Below are positions 6,089 through 34,470 of a stretch of 64,000 bases of DNA, piece after piece. A program made the position numbers and the translations under genes. The DNA lies in contig NZ_CP050699.1 in the NCBI RefSeq assembly GCF_005116675.2, positions 806,001 to 870,000 on the forward strand, in the 5' to 3' direction. Positions within the stretch are counted from its first letter, which is position 1. Each line of letters starts with the position of its first letter. The DNA comes from Desulfosediminicola ganghwensis. GTDB lineage: Bacteria; Desulfobacterota; Desulfobulbia; Desulfobulbales; Desulfocapsaceae. A model generated the notes under the pieces. It did not search any database and was not told where the DNA came from. It was given only the letters and a program-made list of their open reading frames with translations.

Positions 6089-8173
6089 TTGAGTACTACA
6101 ATCACTTCTCATTCCGCTCGTGATGAATATTTCTACCTCCTGGAAAATTTGGATAAAGTAGAGAGAGCACTGCGGAAGTCCGAGGATTTTGAGGACACAA
6201 TCGGCGAAGTACTGGATACCTTACTCTCCATTTTTGAAAGTGATCGAGCCTGGCTGCTTTACCCCTGTGATCCGGCAACTCCCACCTGGAGTGTGCCGAT
6301 GGAAAGGACGCGGGAAGGCTATCCCGGAGCATTGCAGAGAGGGAAAGAGATCCCCACCCAGCCAGATGTGAGAAATGTATTCGAAGCTGCATTAAATTCT
6401 GAGGATCCGGTGTCGTATGACAGCGCGTCGAAACGCCAAGTGCCGAATTATGTGGCGAAACAGTATGATGTCAAGTCACAGATAACCACTGCCATTATCC
6501 CCAAAATTGGCAAACCCTGGCTGTTGGGAATGCATCAGTGTTCCCACGAACGGATCTGGACCCCAAAAGATAAACAGCTTTTTCAAGAGGTAGGCCGGAG
6601 GCTGGCCGATGCCTTGAATACTCTTCTTGCCCTTCGTCACTTAAAGGAGAGCGAGGAGAAATATCGGTTGCTGGTGGAAAACCAGACGGATCTCGTGGTC
6701 AAGGTTGACTTGGAGGGCAGGTTTCATTTCGTCAGCCATTCGTATTGTGAGATGTTCGGCAAGGAAGAGGGCGAGCTACTGGGGCAGCAGTTCATGCCTA
6801 TGGTGCATGAAGGCGACCGAGAGCAGACTGCGAAAGCGATGGAGGCACTTTGGGTTCCGCCCCATACAGCCTATATGGAACAACGGGCTATGACCAAGGA
6901 TGGCTGGCGGTGGCTGGCGTGGGTTGACACTGCGGTTTTGGATGAAGGTGGTGAGGTGCAGTCAATAATCGGGGTCGGCCGGGATATTACGGCCCAGAAA
7001 GAAGCCGAAGAGGAGCAAAGGAAACTGCAGGATAAGCTTTTGCAGGCTGAAAAGCTGGAATCTATCGGTCGACTGGCCGGGGGAGTCGCGCACGACTTTA
7101 ACAATATGCTAGGAGCCATTCTCGGCTATTCAGAACTGGCGCTCAGCGAGGTCAAGCCTGGTACCAAACTGCACCAACACTTGTTGCAGATTCATAAGGC
7201 GTCGGAACGTTCGATCGATTTAACACGGCAGCTGCTCGGTTTTGCCCGTAAACAGACCTTTTCTCCCAAACCGCTCAAGGTAAACGATACCATCCAGGGG
7301 GGGCTTAAGATCCTCACCCGCCTCATCGGTGAGGAGATCGAGCTGATCTGGGCACCCGGGTCCGATAATTGGCAGGTCAGGGCTGATCCGGGCCAGATCG
7401 ACCAGATTATGGCCAATCTTTTAATCAATGGCCGAGATGCAATCAACGGCATCGGCAAGATCATCATCTCCACCGAGGGCGTTGACCTGCAAAAGGGTGA
7501 TTGCCGGAACCGGCCAGCCGTCAAGCCCGGCCAATATGTCTGTATCTCCGTAAAAGATAATGGCGCCGGCATTGACGTGGAAACGTTGCCCCACGTTTTT
7601 GATCCGTTCTATACCACCAAGCCGGTGGGCGAGGGGACAGGCCTTGGGTTGGCCACGGTCTACGGGATTGTAATGCAGAATGATGGCTTTATCGAGGTGG
7701 AAAGCGAACCCGGGGCCGGCACCACCTTTCTCGTTTACCTCCCGCGATACCTGGGATGCGACTCGGCTGAGATAATGGTTCCCGAAAAGGATGAATCATA
7801 TAAGGGGCAGGAGGTGATCATGGTGGTGGAGGATGATCCGCTCATCCTTGAGTTAGCGTGCAACGTGCTTACCGGACTGGGCTATGAGTGTTTGCCGGCC
7901 AATAAGCCCTCGGAGGCCCTGTATATAGCGGAAACGCATGCCGGCCCGATTGATCTGCTGCTTACCGATGTGGTTATGCCGGAGATGAACGGCCGTGAGC
8001 TCTCCAAGCGATTTCTCTCCCTACACCCCGGCAGCAAGTGTCTGTTTATGTCCGGCTACGACTCCGATGTCGTCGCCCATCGGGGGATTCTGGACCAGGA
8101 GATCAATTTTATCCAAAAACCCTTTTCCATAAATGAATTGGCCAATAAATTGCGGGAGATCTTCTCCAAATAG
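6089..8173 (+). CDS. Hybrid sensor histidine kinase (GAF-PAS-HisKA-HATPase-REC), 694 aa
   Basis: A soluble sensor kinase. Order: GAF-like sensor (about 25-170), PAS (about 185-305, with VDLEGRFHFVSHSYCEMFG), HisKA with the phospho-accepting His in GVAHDFNNMLG (about 335), and HATPase with DNGAGID (about 490) and GTGLGLATVYGIV (about 516). A C-terminal receiver follows, with its Asp in LLLTDVVMPEMNG (about 628). There is no membrane segment, so it senses a cytoplasmic signal. The start is TTG; no ATG in frame fits better. The start overlaps the stop of a short upstream frame, which suggests translational coupling. No response regulator gene is adjacent, so phosphotransfer probably goes to the fused receiver and then to an unlinked partner. 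Confidence 0.88.
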   Translation: MSTTITSHSARDEYFYLLENLDKVERALRKSEDFEDTIGEVLDTLLSIFESDRAWLLYPCDPATPTWSVPMERTREGYPGALQRGKEIPTQPDVRNVFEAALNSEDPVSYDSASKRQVPNYVAKQYDVKSQITTAIIPKIGKPWLLGMHQCSHERIWTPKDKQLFQEVGRRLADALNTLLALRHLKESEEKYRLLVENQTDLVVKVDLEGRFHFVSHSYCEMFGKEEGELLGQQFMPMVHEGDREQTAKAMEALWVPPHTAYMEQRAMTKDGWRWLAWVDTAVLDEGGEVQSIIGVGRDITAQKEAEEEQRKLQDKLLQAEKLESIGRLAGGVAHDFNNMLGAILGYSELALSEVKPGTKLHQHLLQIHKASERSIDLTRQLLGFARKQTFSPKPLKVNDTIQGGLKILTRLIGEEIELIWAPGSDNWQVRADPGQIDQIMANLLINGRDAINGIGKIIISTEGVDLQKGDCRNRPAVKPGQYVCISVKDNGAGIDVETLPHVFDPFYTTKPVGEGTGLGLATVYGIVMQNDGFIEVESEPGAGTTFLVYLPRYLGCDSAEIMVPEKDESYKGQEVIMVVEDDPLILELACNVLTGLGYECLPANKPSEALYIAETHAGPIDLLLTDVVMPEMNGRELSKRFLSLHPGSKCLFMSGYDSDVVAHRGILDQEINFIQKPFSINELANKLREIFSK

Positions 8174-9585: not shown

Positions 9586-10001
9586 GGGGCGGTTCCGCTC
9601 AAGCGTTATTCAGCAGGATACGTATCTTCTCCCTTGTCAGCGTTATATCGAGATGAATCCAGTCCGTGCCGGAATGGTGAAACATCCTGGGGACTACAGG
9701 TGGTCGAGCTATAGGGTTAACGGGCAAGGTGATCCGTCGAAACTGCTCACGCAGCATCCGATCTATAATGACCTTGAGCTAAATTTTAAAGAACGTCTAT
9801 CGGCGTACAGAGAACTGTTCAGGCATGAGTTGGAGCCCGGTGAGATCGATAAAATTCGGAAAGCGACCAACGGGAATTTTGTTTCAGGCACAAGCCGTTT
9901 TCAGGAGGAAGTGGGAGCCATACTTGATCGTCGGGTTACTCCCGGGCGAGCCGGCCGGCCGAGAAAAAGAATGTGAAGAAACAGGAAACGTGGTCTGCCC
10001 C
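9586..10001 (+). pseudogene. RAYT transposase remnant, C-terminal half (copy 2)
   Basis: From GGCGGTTCCGCTCAAGCG on, the sequence is nearly identical to codons 100-229 of the intact transposase at 20991-21680, including MNPVRAGMVKHPGDYRWSSY and the GRPRKRM end. The right end CGTGGTCTGCCCC (9989-10001) is also kept. The first 100 codons, which hold the catalytic HUH motif, are gone. About 90 bases of unrelated sequence beginning with an ATG at 9496 are joined on. The copy cannot be active. The high identity points to a recent truncation. Confidence 0.85.
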
Positions 10002-11808: not shown

Positions 11809-11984
11809 AATCCATCCCCCTGTTATAGTTGTTGATTGGCGTAGGTCTATTAATCGTTCCCAGATCAGTTAAAATACAGACAAAACCCCGAATAAGTTCT
11901 AACGAGTTATCCTGAAAGAATAGCACTTTTGGCCAATATATTTCAAATTTCAAGCGGCTGTTAAAGGGTATCTAATCTTTACAG

Positions 11985-12262
11985 GTTACCATTCAGCAGG
12001 ATACGTACCTTCTCACTTGTCAGCGCCATATCGAGATGAATCCAGTCGGTGCCGGAATGGTGAAACATCCTGGGGAGTGCAGGTGGTCGAGCTATAGGGT
12101 TAATGGGCAAGGTGATCCGTCATAACTGCTCACACAGCATCCGAACCATAATGACCTGGGCCAAAAGTCCAAAGAACGTTTATCGGCGTACAGAGAACTG
12201 TTCAAGCATGAGATGGAGCTTGGTGAGATCTATAAAATACGGAAAGCGACCAACTGCAATTG
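11985..12262 (+). pseudogene. RAYT transposase remnant, internal piece (copy 3)
   Basis: About 275 bases align with codons 105-195 of the intact transposase (ATTCAGCAGGATACGT through ATACGGAAAGCGACCAAC). They carry many substitutions, including a CGA-to-TAA-type stop in GATCCGTCATAACTG. Both ends of the element are missing. This is the oldest-looking of three copies in the window. It lies on the other side of hcp from copy 2, so hcp is bracketed by remnants. Confidence 0.8.
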
Positions 12263-12632
12263 TGACATAAACCAGGGTGAAACCTTCTCGAGGTGTAGCA
12301 AAACAGCCAACACAGATGCTCCATTATCACCTCTTTCCAAATATAGGTATTCATTACTACGGGGCAAAATTTGCACGACCGGACCAGCGCCCATTACGCA
12401 CTTTCAAAGTTCTGCGGACTAAAGACAGACTGTTACAACCATGTCACCAATAGTTTGCTTCTGTTCAGCTATATTGGCGCTAGTGTCTGCCAGGATAAAA
12501 ACGGCGTATACCAGCGCAGCCCTAAACTGTAATTTCCTACAAGTCAGGACAGTAACCGATATAAGATATTTGGTTATTTGCCGGTATAGGTGTGCTTACA
12601 TGAAGCGTAAAACAATATCGGTATGGCCAACA
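12263..12632. other. Intergenic region, nothing recognised
   Basis: About 370 bases with only short, unsupported frames. No repeat, hairpin with a U-run, or RNA gene was recognised. Confidence 0.4.
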
Positions 12633-20934: not shown

Positions 20935-21705
20935 GGGGACAGACCACGATATTGGTTGTGACTTTCCTATTAAATATGTTTAGATAGCCTATGCCTAGAC
21001 GACCACGAATTATACTCCCTGACGTCCCTTTACACATCATCCAGCGTGGCAATAATCGTCAAGCCTGCTTTTTTGCTGATGAAGACTATTGTTTTTATCT
21101 CGATTGGTTACAGGAATATTCTCGTAAATCAGGCTGTGCCATACACGCTTATGTTTTGATGACGAATCATGTTCACCTTCTGCTGACACCAAAGCGAAAA
21201 GAGAGTGCGGGTAATCTCATGAAGCTGCTTGGTCAGCGTTACGTGCAGTACATCAATCGTACCTATAAACGTAGTGGAACGCTCTGGGAAGGGCGGTTCC
21301 GCTCAAGCGTTATTCAGCAGGATACGTATCTTCTCACTTGTCAGCGTTATATCGAGATGAACCCAGTCCGTGCCGGAATGGTAAAATATCCTGGGGACTA
21401 CAGGTGGTCGAGCTATGGAGTTAACGGGCAAGGTGACCCGTCGAAACTGCTCACACAGCATCCGATCTATAATGACCTGGGACATAATCTTAAAGAACGT
21501 CTATCGGCGTACAGAGAACTGTTCAGGCATGAGTTGGAGCCCGGTGAGATCGATAGAATACGGAAAGCGACTAACGGGAATTTTGTTTTGGGCACAAGCC
21601 GTTTTCAGGAGGAAGTGGGAACCATACTTGATCGTCGGGTTGCTCCCGGGAAAGCCGGCCGGCCGAGAAAAAGAATGTGAACAATTAAAAACGTGGTCTG
21701 TCCCC
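20935..21705 (+). mobile_element. Intact REP-associated (RAYT) element
   Basis: A 771-bp unit bounded by perfect 14-bp inverted ends: GGGGACAGACCACG (20935-20948) and CGTGGTCTGTCCCC (21692-21705). It carries one transposase gene. Remnants of the same element lie at 9586-10001 and 11985-12262, and isolated end-like motifs at 863, 27319 and 38011. Confidence 0.85.
20991..21680 (+). CDS. RAYT-type Y1/HUH transposase, 229 aa
   Basis: Single-strand transposase of the IS200/IS605-like superfamily. The HUH metal motif is in LMTNHVHLLLTPK (about 57-69). The catalytic Tyr is probably in LLGQRYVQYINRTYKRSG (about 78-95), before GTLWEGRFRSS and YRWSSY. The N-terminus PRRPRIILPDVPLHIIQRGN is typical of REP-associated transposases. 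The frame is complete. It ends in a basic GRPRKRM tail just before the right end of the element. As the only full copy here it could be the source of the decayed ones. Confidence 0.93.
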   Translation: MPRRPRIILPDVPLHIIQRGNNRQACFFADEDYCFYLDWLQEYSRKSGCAIHAYVLMTNHVHLLLTPKRKESAGNLMKLLGQRYVQYINRTYKRSGTLWEGRFRSSVIQQDTYLLTCQRYIEMNPVRAGMVKYPGDYRWSSYGVNGQGDPSKLLTQHPIYNDLGHNLKERLSAYRELFRHELEPGEIDRIRKATNGNFVLGTSRFQEEVGTILDRRVAPGKAGRPRKRM

Positions 21706-26829: not shown

Positions 26830-26978
26830 CCAGGAGCCTGTCGGACTATGGCGGTTTTCACTCAAATCGAGGCATCGAAGGAAAATAAGCGGAGCCATGA
26901 GGTTGATATTGCGAGCAGTGTTTTTTCCGTCGATAACGATGAGTTGGTTGAAAAGGGTTTAGTCTGACAGGCTCCTGG
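26830..26978. mobile_element. MITE-like element, copy 1
   Basis: A 149-bp unit with 18-bp terminal inverted repeats starting CCAGGAGCCTGTCGGACT, with one mismatch. The inside is non-coding apart from short frames. A second copy at 32023-32196 shares the ends and two internal blocks (ACTCAAATCGAGGCATCGAA and TCGATAACGATGAGTTGG). No transposase is linked in the window. Confidence 0.75.
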
Positions 26979-32022: not shown

Positions 32023-32196
32023 CCAGGAGACTGTCGGACTATTGCGATTTTCACTCAAATCGAGGCATCGAAAGAAAATTAAGCGGAGCCATATAGATAA
32101 TATCGAAGTCTCACTTCGTTCGCTTATCTGCGAGCATTAATTTTTTTTCGATAACGATGAGTTGGCTAAAAAGGGCTTAGTCCGACAGACTCCTGG
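32023..32196. mobile_element. MITE-like element, copy 2
   Basis: 174 bp with ends CCAGGAGACTGTCGGACT and its near-perfect complement. It matches copy 1 (26830-26978), with an extra segment of about 25 bases in the middle (TCGAAGTCTCACTTCGTTCG). It lies 230 bases before the selenocysteine peptide gene, so its border could influence that gene's promoter. Confidence 0.75.
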
Positions 32197-32429
32197 AGCT
32201 ACACCTGGAACGCTACCTCAGCGATTACGGCTGTCTTGCGGTTTATGTGTCTGCTATTCAGGGAAAATTCCTCTTGTTTACAATGTGAATCAAAAATTGA
32301 TATTGGCTGTAGCAGAGCTGTTGCAGTGCACACGTTTGACAGGCCAGTGTTTCTTCTGCTATCGGTATGTTATTAGGTGGCGCATTCTTGGGGGAGAAAC
32401 CTCACCACGGGTAAACGAAGGAGCGAACC

Positions 32430-32759
32430 ATGAAAAAGGACTTGAAAAAGTTGCTAGCAGGTCTTGGGGTGGCGGGTCTGATCGGCGCAGGCGGGGTAAC
32501 CCTGCCGGGACATGTTGCCGGCAGTGGTTGAGGCGGTTCCAGCGGCACAGGTGGTGCCGATGCAGAAAAGCCTGCAGGGACCAGTGGCTGAAGCGGTCAG
32601 ACTGAAGGCGCCGTGAGCGCTGAAGAAAAGACCGAAGAAACGGTTGAAGAGGGTAAGCAGGCAGCAGAAGACATGGAGAAAGAGGGTGAGGAAAAAGTAG
32701 AAGAGGGTAGTGAAGAGGTTCTGCCCAAGAAAACCGGATCGAGTGGTTGAAGCGGCTGA
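32430..32759 (+). CDS. Selenocysteine peptide precursor with three in-frame TGA codons, 109 aa
   Basis: A GAAGGAG site precedes ATG 32430. Reading TGA as selenocysteine (U), the frame runs MKKDLKKLLAGLGVAGLIG, a Gly-rich hydrophobic leader, then GSGUGGSSGTGG (U34), GTSGUSGQTEG (U54), an acidic Glu/Lys-rich middle (about 65-102), and GSSGUSG (U107). It stops at a fourth TGA (32757). Every U lies in an S-G-U-G/S context. Each is followed by a hairpin in the right place for a bacterial SECIS. This pattern matches what I know as selenobiotic-type precursor peptides, modified by a neighbouring radical SAM enzyme. That enzyme follows 142 bases downstream. The leader probably recruits it. The biological role of the product is unknown. 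Confidence 0.85.
32543..32559 (+). promoter_or_regulatory. SECIS-like hairpin after first TGA
   Basis: CGGCAC-AGGTG-GTGCCG: a 6-bp stem with a GGU-containing loop. The loop begins 17 bases past TGA 32529-32531. This matches the spacing of bacterial SECIS elements, which bind SelB and lie inside the coding region just after the UGA. Confidence 0.55.
32607..32621 (+). promoter_or_regulatory. SECIS-like hairpin after second TGA
   Basis: GGCGC-CGTGA-GCGCT forms a 5-bp stem (one G-U pair). Its loop begins 20 bases past TGA 32589-32591. It is weaker than the other two, and its loop lacks the GGU pattern. Confidence 0.4.
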
Positions 32760-32784
32760 TACAACGTACGGTCGTACGGTTATC
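32758..32784 (+). promoter_or_regulatory. SECIS-like hairpin after third TGA
   Basis: The outer stem GATA/TATC and inner stem CGTAC/GTACG enclose a GGTC loop at 32770-32773. GGUC is the apical loop known from the E. coli fdhF SECIS. The loop starts 19 bases past TGA 32748-32750. The best of the three candidates. Confidence 0.6.
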
Positions 32785-32804: not shown

Positions 32805-32845
32805 AATGCCGATATTTCAGAGAGTGGTATCGGCATTTCTCTTTG
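32805..32845 (+). terminator. Terminator or attenuator between peptide and maturase
   Basis: AATGCCGATA and TATCGGCATT form a 10-bp stem with a 13-base loop, followed by TCTCTTTG. Its place between the precursor and the radical SAM gene would let more peptide than enzyme be made, as is common in RiPP operons. Confidence 0.6.
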
Positions 32846-32901: not shown

Positions 32902-34470
32902 GTGAAAACCAACATTGCCGAGCTACCCGTAACAGCGTCGTACCTTCCAAAGGTATTTGCCCGGACGGGAAATTATGACAGGGTTGAGTCCCTGCTTAAG
33001 GCGATCAGGGATATCGAACAGGCTGAGCATATCACCCTGCATCCGTTCATCTTTGATCTGGCCAGGTTGGAGTGGACACTGCACAAGGTGGACCGCGAGC
33101 ATAACCCTGGTCCGGAACACCAGCATTGCCCTGAAGTGAATCCGACCCTTGAAATCTTGTCCTCAGCCTGGAGTGGGTTGCCTGAAATGCTTGCTGGCAA
33201 TCGAACTTCTGTTCAGCCTGGTGAGGGGTATGTTGCAGTGTGCAAACCCTATGGTAAGCAAAGGGCTTCTGCCCTGAAGATAACGGGTCACGATCTGCTG
33301 GCAATCAAGCTTGTTGCTGAAGACCTCGACAAAAGAGCCGTTGCTCAAGAGGGTGGCACATCGATTGCCGTGGTTGAGAGCTTTCTGGCAGAGGCTCGGG
33401 ATAAGGGCTTGATTCATCTGCCGCGGCCTCTGATTAAAAGGGATGGGGAGATCTTTAAGGCTGAGGATGAGGCTCAATCACAAAACGGGCTATACGCTGA
33501 AATATTTACCCTGCAATGGCATGTAACGCAAAAATGCGATTTAAGCTGCCGCCACTGTTATGATCGTAGCGGCAGGGATGAGATGACCATTGGGCAGGCA
33601 GAGAGCGTCCTGGAGCAATTTGAATCGTTTTGTGAGCACAAGAGGGTGGCCGGTCAGATAAGCTTCAGCGGCGGTAACCCGCTGCTCTATTCTCATTTCG
33701 ATCATGTGTATCAAAAAGCGGCTGAAATGGGTTTTATGATAGCAATCCTTGGAAACCCTTCCCCACGCGAGCAGCTCGAAAAGTTGGTGGCGATAAAGCG
33801 GCCGGAATTTATCCAGGTGAGTCTCGAAGGGCTTAAAGAGCATAACGATTACATCAGGGGCAAAGGCCATTTCGAGAAAACGATAGATTTTCTGACCATG
33901 CTTCGTGAGGTCGGCGTGTATTCAATGGTGATGCTGACCCTGACCAGACACAATTTGAAAGAGGTGCTGCCGTTGGCAGAACTTCTTCGAGATAAGACCA
34001 ATCTCTTCAACTTTAACCGTCTCTCCCCTGTGGGGGAGGGGGCGGCACTGGAGACTGTGCCCACCCATGATTACCGCGATTTCCTTGAGGAGTATATGCG
34101 TGCCGCCGGCGAAAACCCGATTATGGGCTTGAAAGATAACCTGTTCAACATCATCCGGGACGAAGACGATCTCGCCCTCACAGGTGGCTGCACAGGTTTT
34201 GGCTGCGGTGCCGCCTTCAATTTCGTCTCCCTGCTACCTGACGGTGAGGTACACGCCTGCAGGAAATTCCCGTCCCTTATCGGCAATATCCATGATTCAA
34301 GCCTTGAAGAAATCTATCATTCAGAGATGGCCGGGAAGTATCGCAATGGCTCATCCGGTTGTAACGGTTGCAGAGTCAGGAGATTTTGCGGAGGCTGTCT
34401 GGCGGTGGTTCAGGGAAGCGGGGGAGATCCCTTCATCGACATAGATCCCTATTGTTTTATCTCTGCCTGA
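32902..34470 (+). CDS. Radical SAM/SPASM peptide maturase, 522 aa
   Basis: The radical SAM cluster motif C212-x3-C216-x2-C219 is in QKCDLSCRHCYDRSG. A SAM-binding Gly-rich strand follows (ISFSGGNPLLY). The C-terminal SPASM region (about 450-515) supplies further Fe-S Cys: HACRKFPS, then GCNGCRVRRFCGGC and PYCF. The 200-residue N-terminal part is helical and probably binds the leader peptide. It starts with GTG at 32902 with a weak site (GAAGGA). The best-known function of such proteins is modifying a small peptide made next door; here that is the selenocysteine peptide. The modification itself (for example linking Sec to a neighbouring carbon) cannot be read from sequence. Confidence 0.88.
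   Translation: MKTNIAELPVTASYLPKVFARTGNYDRVESLLKAIRDIEQAEHITLHPFIFDLARLEWTLHKVDREHNPGPEHQHCPEVNPTLEILSSAWSGLPEMLAGNRTSVQPGEGYVAVCKPYGKQRASALKITGHDLLAIKLVAEDLDKRAVAQEGGTSIAVVESFLAEARDKGLIHLPRPLIKRDGEIFKAEDEAQSQNGLYAEIFTLQWHVTQKCDLSCRHCYDRSGRDEMTIGQAESVLEQFESFCEHKRVAGQISFSGGNPLLYSHFDHVYQKAAEMGFMIAILGNPSPREQLEKLVAIKRPEFIQVSLEGLKEHNDYIRGKGHFEKTIDFLTMLREVGVYSMVMLTLTRHNLKEVLPLAELLRDKTNLFNFNRLSPVGEGAALETVPTHDYRDFLEEYMRAAGENPIMGLKDNLFNIIRDEDDLALTGGCTGFGCGAAFNFVSLLPDGEVHACRKFPSLIGNIHDSSLEEIYHSEMAGKYRNGSSGCNGCRVRRFCGGCLAVVQGSGGDPFIDIDPYCFISA

What the first reader, a model, noticed from the sequence alone, without database searches (positions are those of the whole stretch)
32529..32784. Each TGA of the peptide gene is followed by a SECIS-like hairpin, one with a GGUC loop
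Seen: CGGCAC/GTGCCG with an AGGTG loop after TGA 1; GGCGC/GCGCT after TGA 2; CGTAC/GTACG with a GGTC loop after TGA 3. Loop distances from the TGA are about 17, 20 and 19 bases. Known: bacterial SECIS elements sit within about 40 bases after the UGA, and the fdhF loop contains GGUC. Three in a 330-base gene would mean three SelB decoding events.
Basis: partly seen in the sequence, partly recalled or inferred. Interest (0 to 1): 0.7.

Follow-up and report, generated by a model that had tools for sequence, protein, structure and literature searches.

The report
Three SECIS hairpins in a selenopeptide gene

Summary
The gene is an SbtA precursor (NCBIfam TIGR04081, formerly 'selenobacteriocin'), upstream of its radical-SAM maturase SbtM (TIGR04082).

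I collected 105 SbtA genes with 259 predicted Sec-UGA codons. At 176 internal sites, 76% have a rule-conforming SECIS hairpin of -7.5 kcal/mol or better, against 16% after synonymous-codon permutation. Five of six stem pairs show compensatory change (88 double-changed cells against 25.5 in shuffles). Cys-coded copies of the motif lack the hairpin-encoding sequence (0/24, against 154/180 at UGA sites). A model without window sequence ranks sites 2 and 1 as the only hits in the whole genome at E <= 1.

Site 3 is weaker alone, but matches a second covarying class lying beyond the stop codon. The fourth TGA (32757) is the stop: most homologues have TAA or TAG after their last Sec. selB, tRNA-Sec and selD are present; selA's expected place is a 7.5-kb run of N.

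Verdict: interpretation supported; a new three-Sec member of a known family.

The parts
32430..32759 (+). sbtA: precursor peptide, 109 codons plus TGA stop, MKKDLKKLLAGLGVAGLIGAGGVTLPGHVAGSGUGG...TSGUSG...SSGUSG
   Evidence: TIGR04081 38.3 bits against cut-off 30.5; only match in the genome; AAGGAG at 32418-32423 upstream of ATG
32529..32531 (+). TGA 1, codon 34, read as Sec
   Evidence: SGU motif shared with homologues; SECIS model match 26.2 bits starting at this TGA
32543..32559 (+). SECIS hairpin 1: 6 bp CGGCAC/GTGCCG, loop AGGTG at 32549-32553, spacing 17
   Evidence: -10.0 kcal/mol with two outer pairs; model R1, which holds no window sequence, 26.2 bits
32589..32591 (+). TGA 2, codon 54, read as Sec
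32607..32621 (+). SECIS hairpin 2: 5 bp GGCGC/GCGCT, loop CGTGA at 32612-32616, spacing 20
   Evidence: -6.1 kcal/mol alone; model R1 32.8 bits, best match in the genome
32748..32750 (+). TGA 3, codon 107, read as Sec
   Evidence: SGUSG C-terminus shared with homologues
32757..32759 (+). TGA 4: the stop codon, 9 nt after TGA 3
   Evidence: homologues ending SGUSG have TAA or TAG here; the hairpin is only 10 nt away, below the 16-nt minimum of the bSECIS model
32765..32778 (+). SECIS hairpin 3: 5 bp CGTAC/GTACG, loop GGTC at 32770-32773, spacing 19 from TGA 3; wholly 3' of the stop codon
   Evidence: -4.0 kcal/mol; model R2 of terminal sites, without window sequence, 15.3 bits (E 0.14 in 64 kb, 4e-4 in 201 bases)
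32902..34470 (+). sbtM: radical SAM/SPASM thio(seleno)oxazole maturase
   Evidence: TIGR04082 639 bits against cut-off 350

Best explanation
The gene encodes an SbtA-family RiPP precursor with three selenocysteines. Each of UGA 1-3 is decoded by SelB carrying Sec-tRNA-Sec, recruited by its own mini-SECIS hairpin 17-20 nt downstream (5-6 bp, 4-5 nt loop with a G in its first two positions). The first two hairpins lie inside the coding sequence and dictate part of the peptide (GTGGA after the first Sec, GAVSA after the second). The third lies past the stop codon. The fourth UGA, too close to that hairpin, terminates. SbtM next door then converts the S-G-Sec sites into thio(seleno)oxazoles. Shown here by sequence and comparison: family membership, hairpins, spacing, covariation, Cys/Sec exchange, presence of selB, selC and selD. 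Inferred: actual Sec insertion, SelB binding, the modification in this organism, termination at UGA 4, and presence of selA.
For: Family hits for both genes over curated cut-offs. Sec machinery: selB 384.7 bits, tRNA-Sec 75.4 bits, two selD each with one inner TGA. Homologues carry 1-6 in-frame TGAs at S-G/S-S-U motifs, some replaced by Cys codons. 176 internal Sec sites: 75.6% with a bSECIS-rule hairpin of -7.5 or better, against 15.9% (highest 22.7%) under synonymous-codon permutation; loops at 17 or 20/21. All 5 inner pairs form in 99% of 78 non-redundant register-20 sites, against 18.6% (highest 30.8%) in the null; any slid register gives 0. Covariation in coding sites and in terminal sites past the stop, where most of the sequence is non-coding (101 double-changed cells against 31.9). 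0 of 24 Cys-coded sites carry the hairpin-encoding motif, against 154 of 180 UGA sites. Models without window sequence find sites 2 and 1 as the only genome hits at E <= 1 and site 3 at 15.3 bits.
Against: No experiment. selA was not found by two models; its syntenic place is a 7,500-base run of N, so this is probably an assembly gap or a masked stretch, but presence of selA is inferred. Hairpins 2 and 3 alone miss the -7.5 kcal/mol threshold (-6.1, -4.0), although E. coli fdhF scores only -4.2 in the same calculation. Site 3 has a more stable competing fold in isolation, and an unrelated place in the window scores slightly higher with the terminal-site model (16.8 against 15.3 bits).
Confidence: 0.93

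Rival explanations
1. The hairpins are a by-product of a GC-rich, Gly/Ser/Ala-rich repetitive peptide; UGA 1 is a real stop or the gene is decayed.
For: The peptide is compositionally biased, and synonymous permutation still gives 16-19% good hairpins. Site 3 alone is no better than its shuffles.
Against: The synonymous null is exceeded several-fold. Base pairing is kept through double changes, also in terminal hairpins beyond the stop codon. The reading frame and the SGU motifs continue across all TGAs in about 100 homologues.
Confidence: 0.02
2. Only UGA 1 and 2 are Sec; UGA 3 is the stop and hairpin 3 is chance or a transcription feature.
For: Site 3 has a competing fold and modest model scores (15.3 bits, E 0.14 in 64 kb). 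A few relatives lack a terminal Sec.
Against: Homologues with the same C-terminus (SGUSG or SGUGGxK) have TAA/TAG stops after it and a covarying hairpin of the same loop type at the same distance. The window hairpin has the GGUC loop common in that class.
Confidence: 0.08
3. UGA 4 is also Sec and the peptide runs on to a stop further downstream.
For: The frame stays open under TGA=U, and the bases before UGA 4 encode SG.
Against: The continuation (YNVRSYGYRKGL...) has no counterpart in homologues, which stop at this point with TAA/TAG. No hairpin lies at an allowed distance: the loop is 10 nt away, where the model needs 16-37.
Confidence: 0.02

Closest known systems
SbtA family (NCBIfam TIGR04081, 'selenobacteriocin', thio(seleno)oxazole RiPP precursor; Lewis et al. 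2021, doi 10.1021/acs.biochem.1c00469, cited in PMC13188914)
   Same: Leader, SGU motifs, UGA-encoded Sec followed by SECIS-like elements, neighbouring SbtM. The 2026 review lists the family with motif SGUG and 2 Sec; a 2024 review says the Sec insertion element lies immediately downstream of the TGA.
   Different: Three Sec here, with the stop itself a UGA 9 nt after the last Sec and the last SECIS past it. The original 2021 paper was not available in the library.
E. coli fdhF SECIS
   Same: Small hairpin with a GGU-containing loop 17-18 nt after the UGA. Window loop 1 (A-GGU-G at 17) matches fdhF's position (A-GGUC-U) and loop 3 is GGUC.
   Different: fdhF has one Sec and, from general knowledge, a longer lower stem; here three separate mini-hairpins of 5-6 bp stand in one short gene.
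KCU-star family selenoprotein (NF033934), listed in PMC13188914
   Same: By its name, Sec at or near the C-terminus, so that the SECIS would have to reach past the stop codon (inference, not checked).
   Different: Unrelated protein with a single Sec, not a RiPP precursor.

Membership tests
SbtA (TIGR04081) precursor | Profile match over the curated cut-off | tested here: met
   38.3 bits against 30.5; genome search 41.6 bits
SbtA (TIGR04081) precursor | Encoded next to SbtM (TIGR04082) | tested here: met
   SbtM starts 142 bases downstream, 639 bits against 350
SbtA (TIGR04081) precursor | S-G-U/C modification motifs | tested here: met
   SGUGG, SGUSG, SGUSG; same motifs in homologues, U or C
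SbtA (TIGR04081) precursor | Thio(seleno)oxazole installed on the peptide | not testable with these tools
   needs biochemistry
Bacterial SECIS (bSECIS model as given in PMC13188914) | Spacing 16-37 nt from UGA to apical loop | tested here: met
   17, 20 and 19 nt
Bacterial SECIS (bSECIS model as given in PMC13188914) | Loop of 3-9 nt, stem of 4-16 bp, G in the first two loop positions | tested here: met
   AGGTG/6 bp, CGTGA/5 bp, GGTC/5 bp
Bacterial SECIS (bSECIS model as given in PMC13188914) | MFE of -7.5 kcal/mol or lower | tested here: inconclusive
   Hairpin alone -10.0, -6.1, -4.0; 45-nt folds -18.7, -12.4, -8.7, the last with another fold; fdhF hairpin alone -4.2. The stretch to which the threshold applies is not stated.
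Bacterial SECIS (bSECIS model as given in PMC13188914) | Structure conserved by compensatory change in homologues | tested here: met
Bacterial SECIS (bSECIS model as given in PMC13188914) | Bound by SelB, directs Sec insertion | not testable with these tools
   needs a reporter or binding assay
Sec-decoding organism | selB, selC (tRNA-Sec) and selD present | tested here: met
Sec-decoding organism | selA present | tested here: inconclusive
   No match, but a homologue of the gene that follows selA in a same-genus genome borders a 7,500-base run of N

The most novel reading that the evidence does not exclude
In this family one mRNA tells Sec-UGA from stop-UGA by distance to the hairpin alone: in the window two in-frame UGAs 9 nt apart sit before one SECIS located beyond the stop codon, and the first is Sec while the second terminates. 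In some relatives one hairpin serves two UGA codons 4-5 codons apart, the farther one with no hairpin of its own (L010, L017, L030, L068, L105), which departs from the rule of one SECIS per UGA in bacteria.
Probability: 0.4. Interest if true: 0.7.

Novelty: new member of a known kind. Interest (0 to 1): 0.45.

Why it matters
It turns a visual impression into a quantified case: a bacterial peptide family in which every Sec codon carries its own covarying SECIS, so that part of the peptide sequence (the repeated [AT][VG][SGTA] motif some 6-9 residues after each U) is there because it encodes RNA structure. With three Sec in 109 codons and a UGA stop 9 nt after the last one, the gene is a compact natural test of how SelB spacing rules separate Sec from stop. 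Standard gene callers end such genes at the first UGA.

Tried and rejected
(1) selA absence as a real oddity: two models found none and one same-genus genome also lacks a match. I followed synteny from a same-genus selA to its downstream gene in this genome; the adjoining stretch is 7,500 N, so the absence is not evidence. (2) Rfam has no match in the window; its gathering-threshold search does not catch these hairpins. (3) UGA 4 as Sec: rejected, see rivals. (4) The -7.5 kcal/mol rule on the isolated hairpin as a hard filter: dropped as a pass/fail test, since fdhF itself scores -4.2 in the same calculation. (5) A first null for terminal sites left the untranslated part unchanged and so gave no contrast; redone with shuffled UTR. 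(6) A minus-strand match of the terminal-site model at 7151-7194 (16.8 bits) lies antisense to a long ORF of sensor-kinase type (6089-8173; by appearance, not searched): treated as chance. (7) Neighbouring genes (MBL hydrolase, HD-domain protein, acyl-CoA dehydrogenase) are not conserved next to SbtM in 80 loci, apart from one acyl-CoA dehydrogenase hit. (8) The original SbtM paper and Haft and Tolstoy 2025 are not held.

Full report
What is there. The gene at 32430-32759 begins with ATG behind AAGGAG and encodes a leader peptide plus a Gly/Ser-rich and then acidic tail. Read with TGA as U it is MKKDLKKLLAGLGVAGLIGAGGVTLPGHVAGSGUGGSSGTGGADAEKPAGTSGUSGQTEGAVSAEE...KKTGSSGUSG. NCBIfam TIGR04081 (SbtA, thio(seleno)oxazole RiPP precursor) matches at 38.3 bits against a cut-off of 30.5, and the next gene, 32902-34470, is SbtM (TIGR04082) at 639 bits against 350. 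It is the only SbtA in the genome.

The hairpins. They are at the stated places with loops 17, 20 and 19 nt after TGAs 32529, 32589 and 32748. Against dinucleotide shuffles of 45 nt, sites 1 and 2 fold better than most (5/200 and 9/200 shuffles as good) and site 3 does not (97/200). One sequence alone would therefore leave the case open, and site 3 doubtful.

Comparative set. TIGR04081 was found in 39 of 395 genomes of the phylum. A scan with an SbtM alignment gave 80 further loci, nearly all named Desulfobacterota/deltaproteobacterial records with a few labelled Nitrospirae/Nitrospirota. After removing duplicates I had 105 SbtA genes with 259 predicted Sec codons; most genes have 2 or 3, up to 6. 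Cys codons replace Sec at the same motif in several genes, for example the third site of L019 and nearly all sites of L026, L060 and L131.

Test against chance. For each gene I permuted synonymous codons, which keeps the peptide and the gene's codon usage, and looked for hairpins under the published bSECIS rules. Of 176 internal sites 75.6% had one of -7.5 kcal/mol or better, against 15.9% in the null (highest of 100 permutations 22.7%). At -4 kcal/mol the figures are 97.7% against 47.1%. Loops start at 17 or at 20/21 nt, as in the window. Choosing the register by the peptide motif rather than by pairing, all five inner pairs form in 99% of 78 non-redundant sites (register 20) and 100% of 37 (register 17), against null means of 18.6% and 16.3% and 0% in every slid register. 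Pairing stops sharply after six pairs.

Covariation. A MAFFT alignment of 67 internal sites without the window brought both registers into line by itself. Five of six pairs have changes on both sides; 88 cells have double changes against 25.5 in shuffles; the covariation score is 0.57 against 0.26, and 0.16 or less when slid. RNAalifold independently returns the same six pairs. In 48 disjoint sister pairs of sites, double changes that keep the pair occur 8 times in register and never in six slid controls, which answers the objection that relatedness alone could give the score.

Cys-coded control. The hairpin is encoded by a peptide motif [AT][VG][SGTA] at residues +6 to +9 after U. It follows 154 of 180 testable U sites and none of 24 Cys-coded sites. 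The motif is thus tied to UGA decoding, not to the S-G-C/U modification site.

The C-terminal Sec. In 77 Sec sites close to the C-terminus, which include the last site of most genes, the hairpin lies at or past the stop codon. 77.9% pass -7.5 kcal/mol against 7.7% with shuffled UTR. An alignment of 64 such sites without the window gives 101 double-changed cells against 31.9, with up to four Watson-Crick pair types at one position. The window's CGTAC-GGTC-GTACG is of this class (15.3 bits). It remains the weakest of the three: its isolated lowest-energy fold is different. That rival stem uses bases 4-10 after the UGA, which a ribosome with UGA in its A site should cover; this argument is inference.

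UGA 4. Genes whose last Sec is less than ten codons from the end stop with TAA 31, TAG 28 and TGA 16 times, while SbtM genes in related loci stop with TGA in 35 of 80. TGA stops near a SECIS thus look avoided but tolerated. In the window the hairpin loop is 10 nt from UGA 4, below the 16-nt minimum of the model.

Leave-out scoring. Model R1, which contains no window sequence, gives 32.8 bits for site 2 and 26.2 for site 1, the two best in 64 kb, with the next at 10.3, and the only two matches at E <= 1 in the 5.65-Mb genome.

Machinery. selB, tRNA-Sec and two selD genes with an inner TGA are present, and the TGAs at the active-site-like position of both selD genes are followed by stable hairpins too. 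selA is not found, but its expected place is a 7,500-base N run.

Mechanism, with steps marked. Shown by comparison: Sec codons, hairpins, spacing, co-evolution, neighbouring maturase. Inferred from knowledge of the pathway: SelB binds each hairpin and delivers Sec-tRNA-Sec; SbtM installs thio(seleno)oxazoles, as reported in vitro for a family member with Cys and Sec substrates (PMC11002830); termination at UGA 4.

Novelty. The family, its Sec content and the presence of a downstream SECIS are published. I did not find in the open library the per-site covariation, the SECIS-encoded peptide motif, the SECIS past the stop codon, or UGA doublets that share a hairpin; the key 2021 paper was not readable, so I claim no priority for these.

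Noticed in passing
L010, L017, L030, L068, L105 (SbtA genes): Two Sec-UGAs 4-5 codons apart are followed by one hairpin at 17-20 nt from the second; the first has no rule-conforming hairpin of its own at 16-26 nt.
   Followed up: partly
L011, L020 (SbtA genes ending GSUEGxGSU): The hairpin after the first UGA (GGCAGC..GCTGCC) carries the second UGA and the stop codon in its loop, and the second UGA has its own hairpin past the stop.
   Followed up: partly
L153:10502-18001 (G000:C1, about 3922501-3930000): A 7,500-base run of N in the own genome at the place where selA is expected; it explains the failed selA searches.
   Followed up: yes
window 32805-32837: AATGCCGATA ...
   Followed up: no
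window 26830-26978 and 32023-32196: Two copies of a 150-175 bp element with ends CCAGGAG.CTGTC / GACAG.CTCCTGG (inverted), 86-93% alike over their outer parts: a small mobile-element-like repeat, one copy just upstream of sbtA.
   Followed up: partly
window 9587-9886, 11970-12269, 21291-21590: Three copies of a 300-nt direct repeat, 82-94% identical to the first.
   Followed up: no
L008, L022 (SbtA-type leaders): A second gene with a full SbtA leader but no Sec-UGA and no SGC motif stands next to a Sec-containing sbtA.
   Followed up: no
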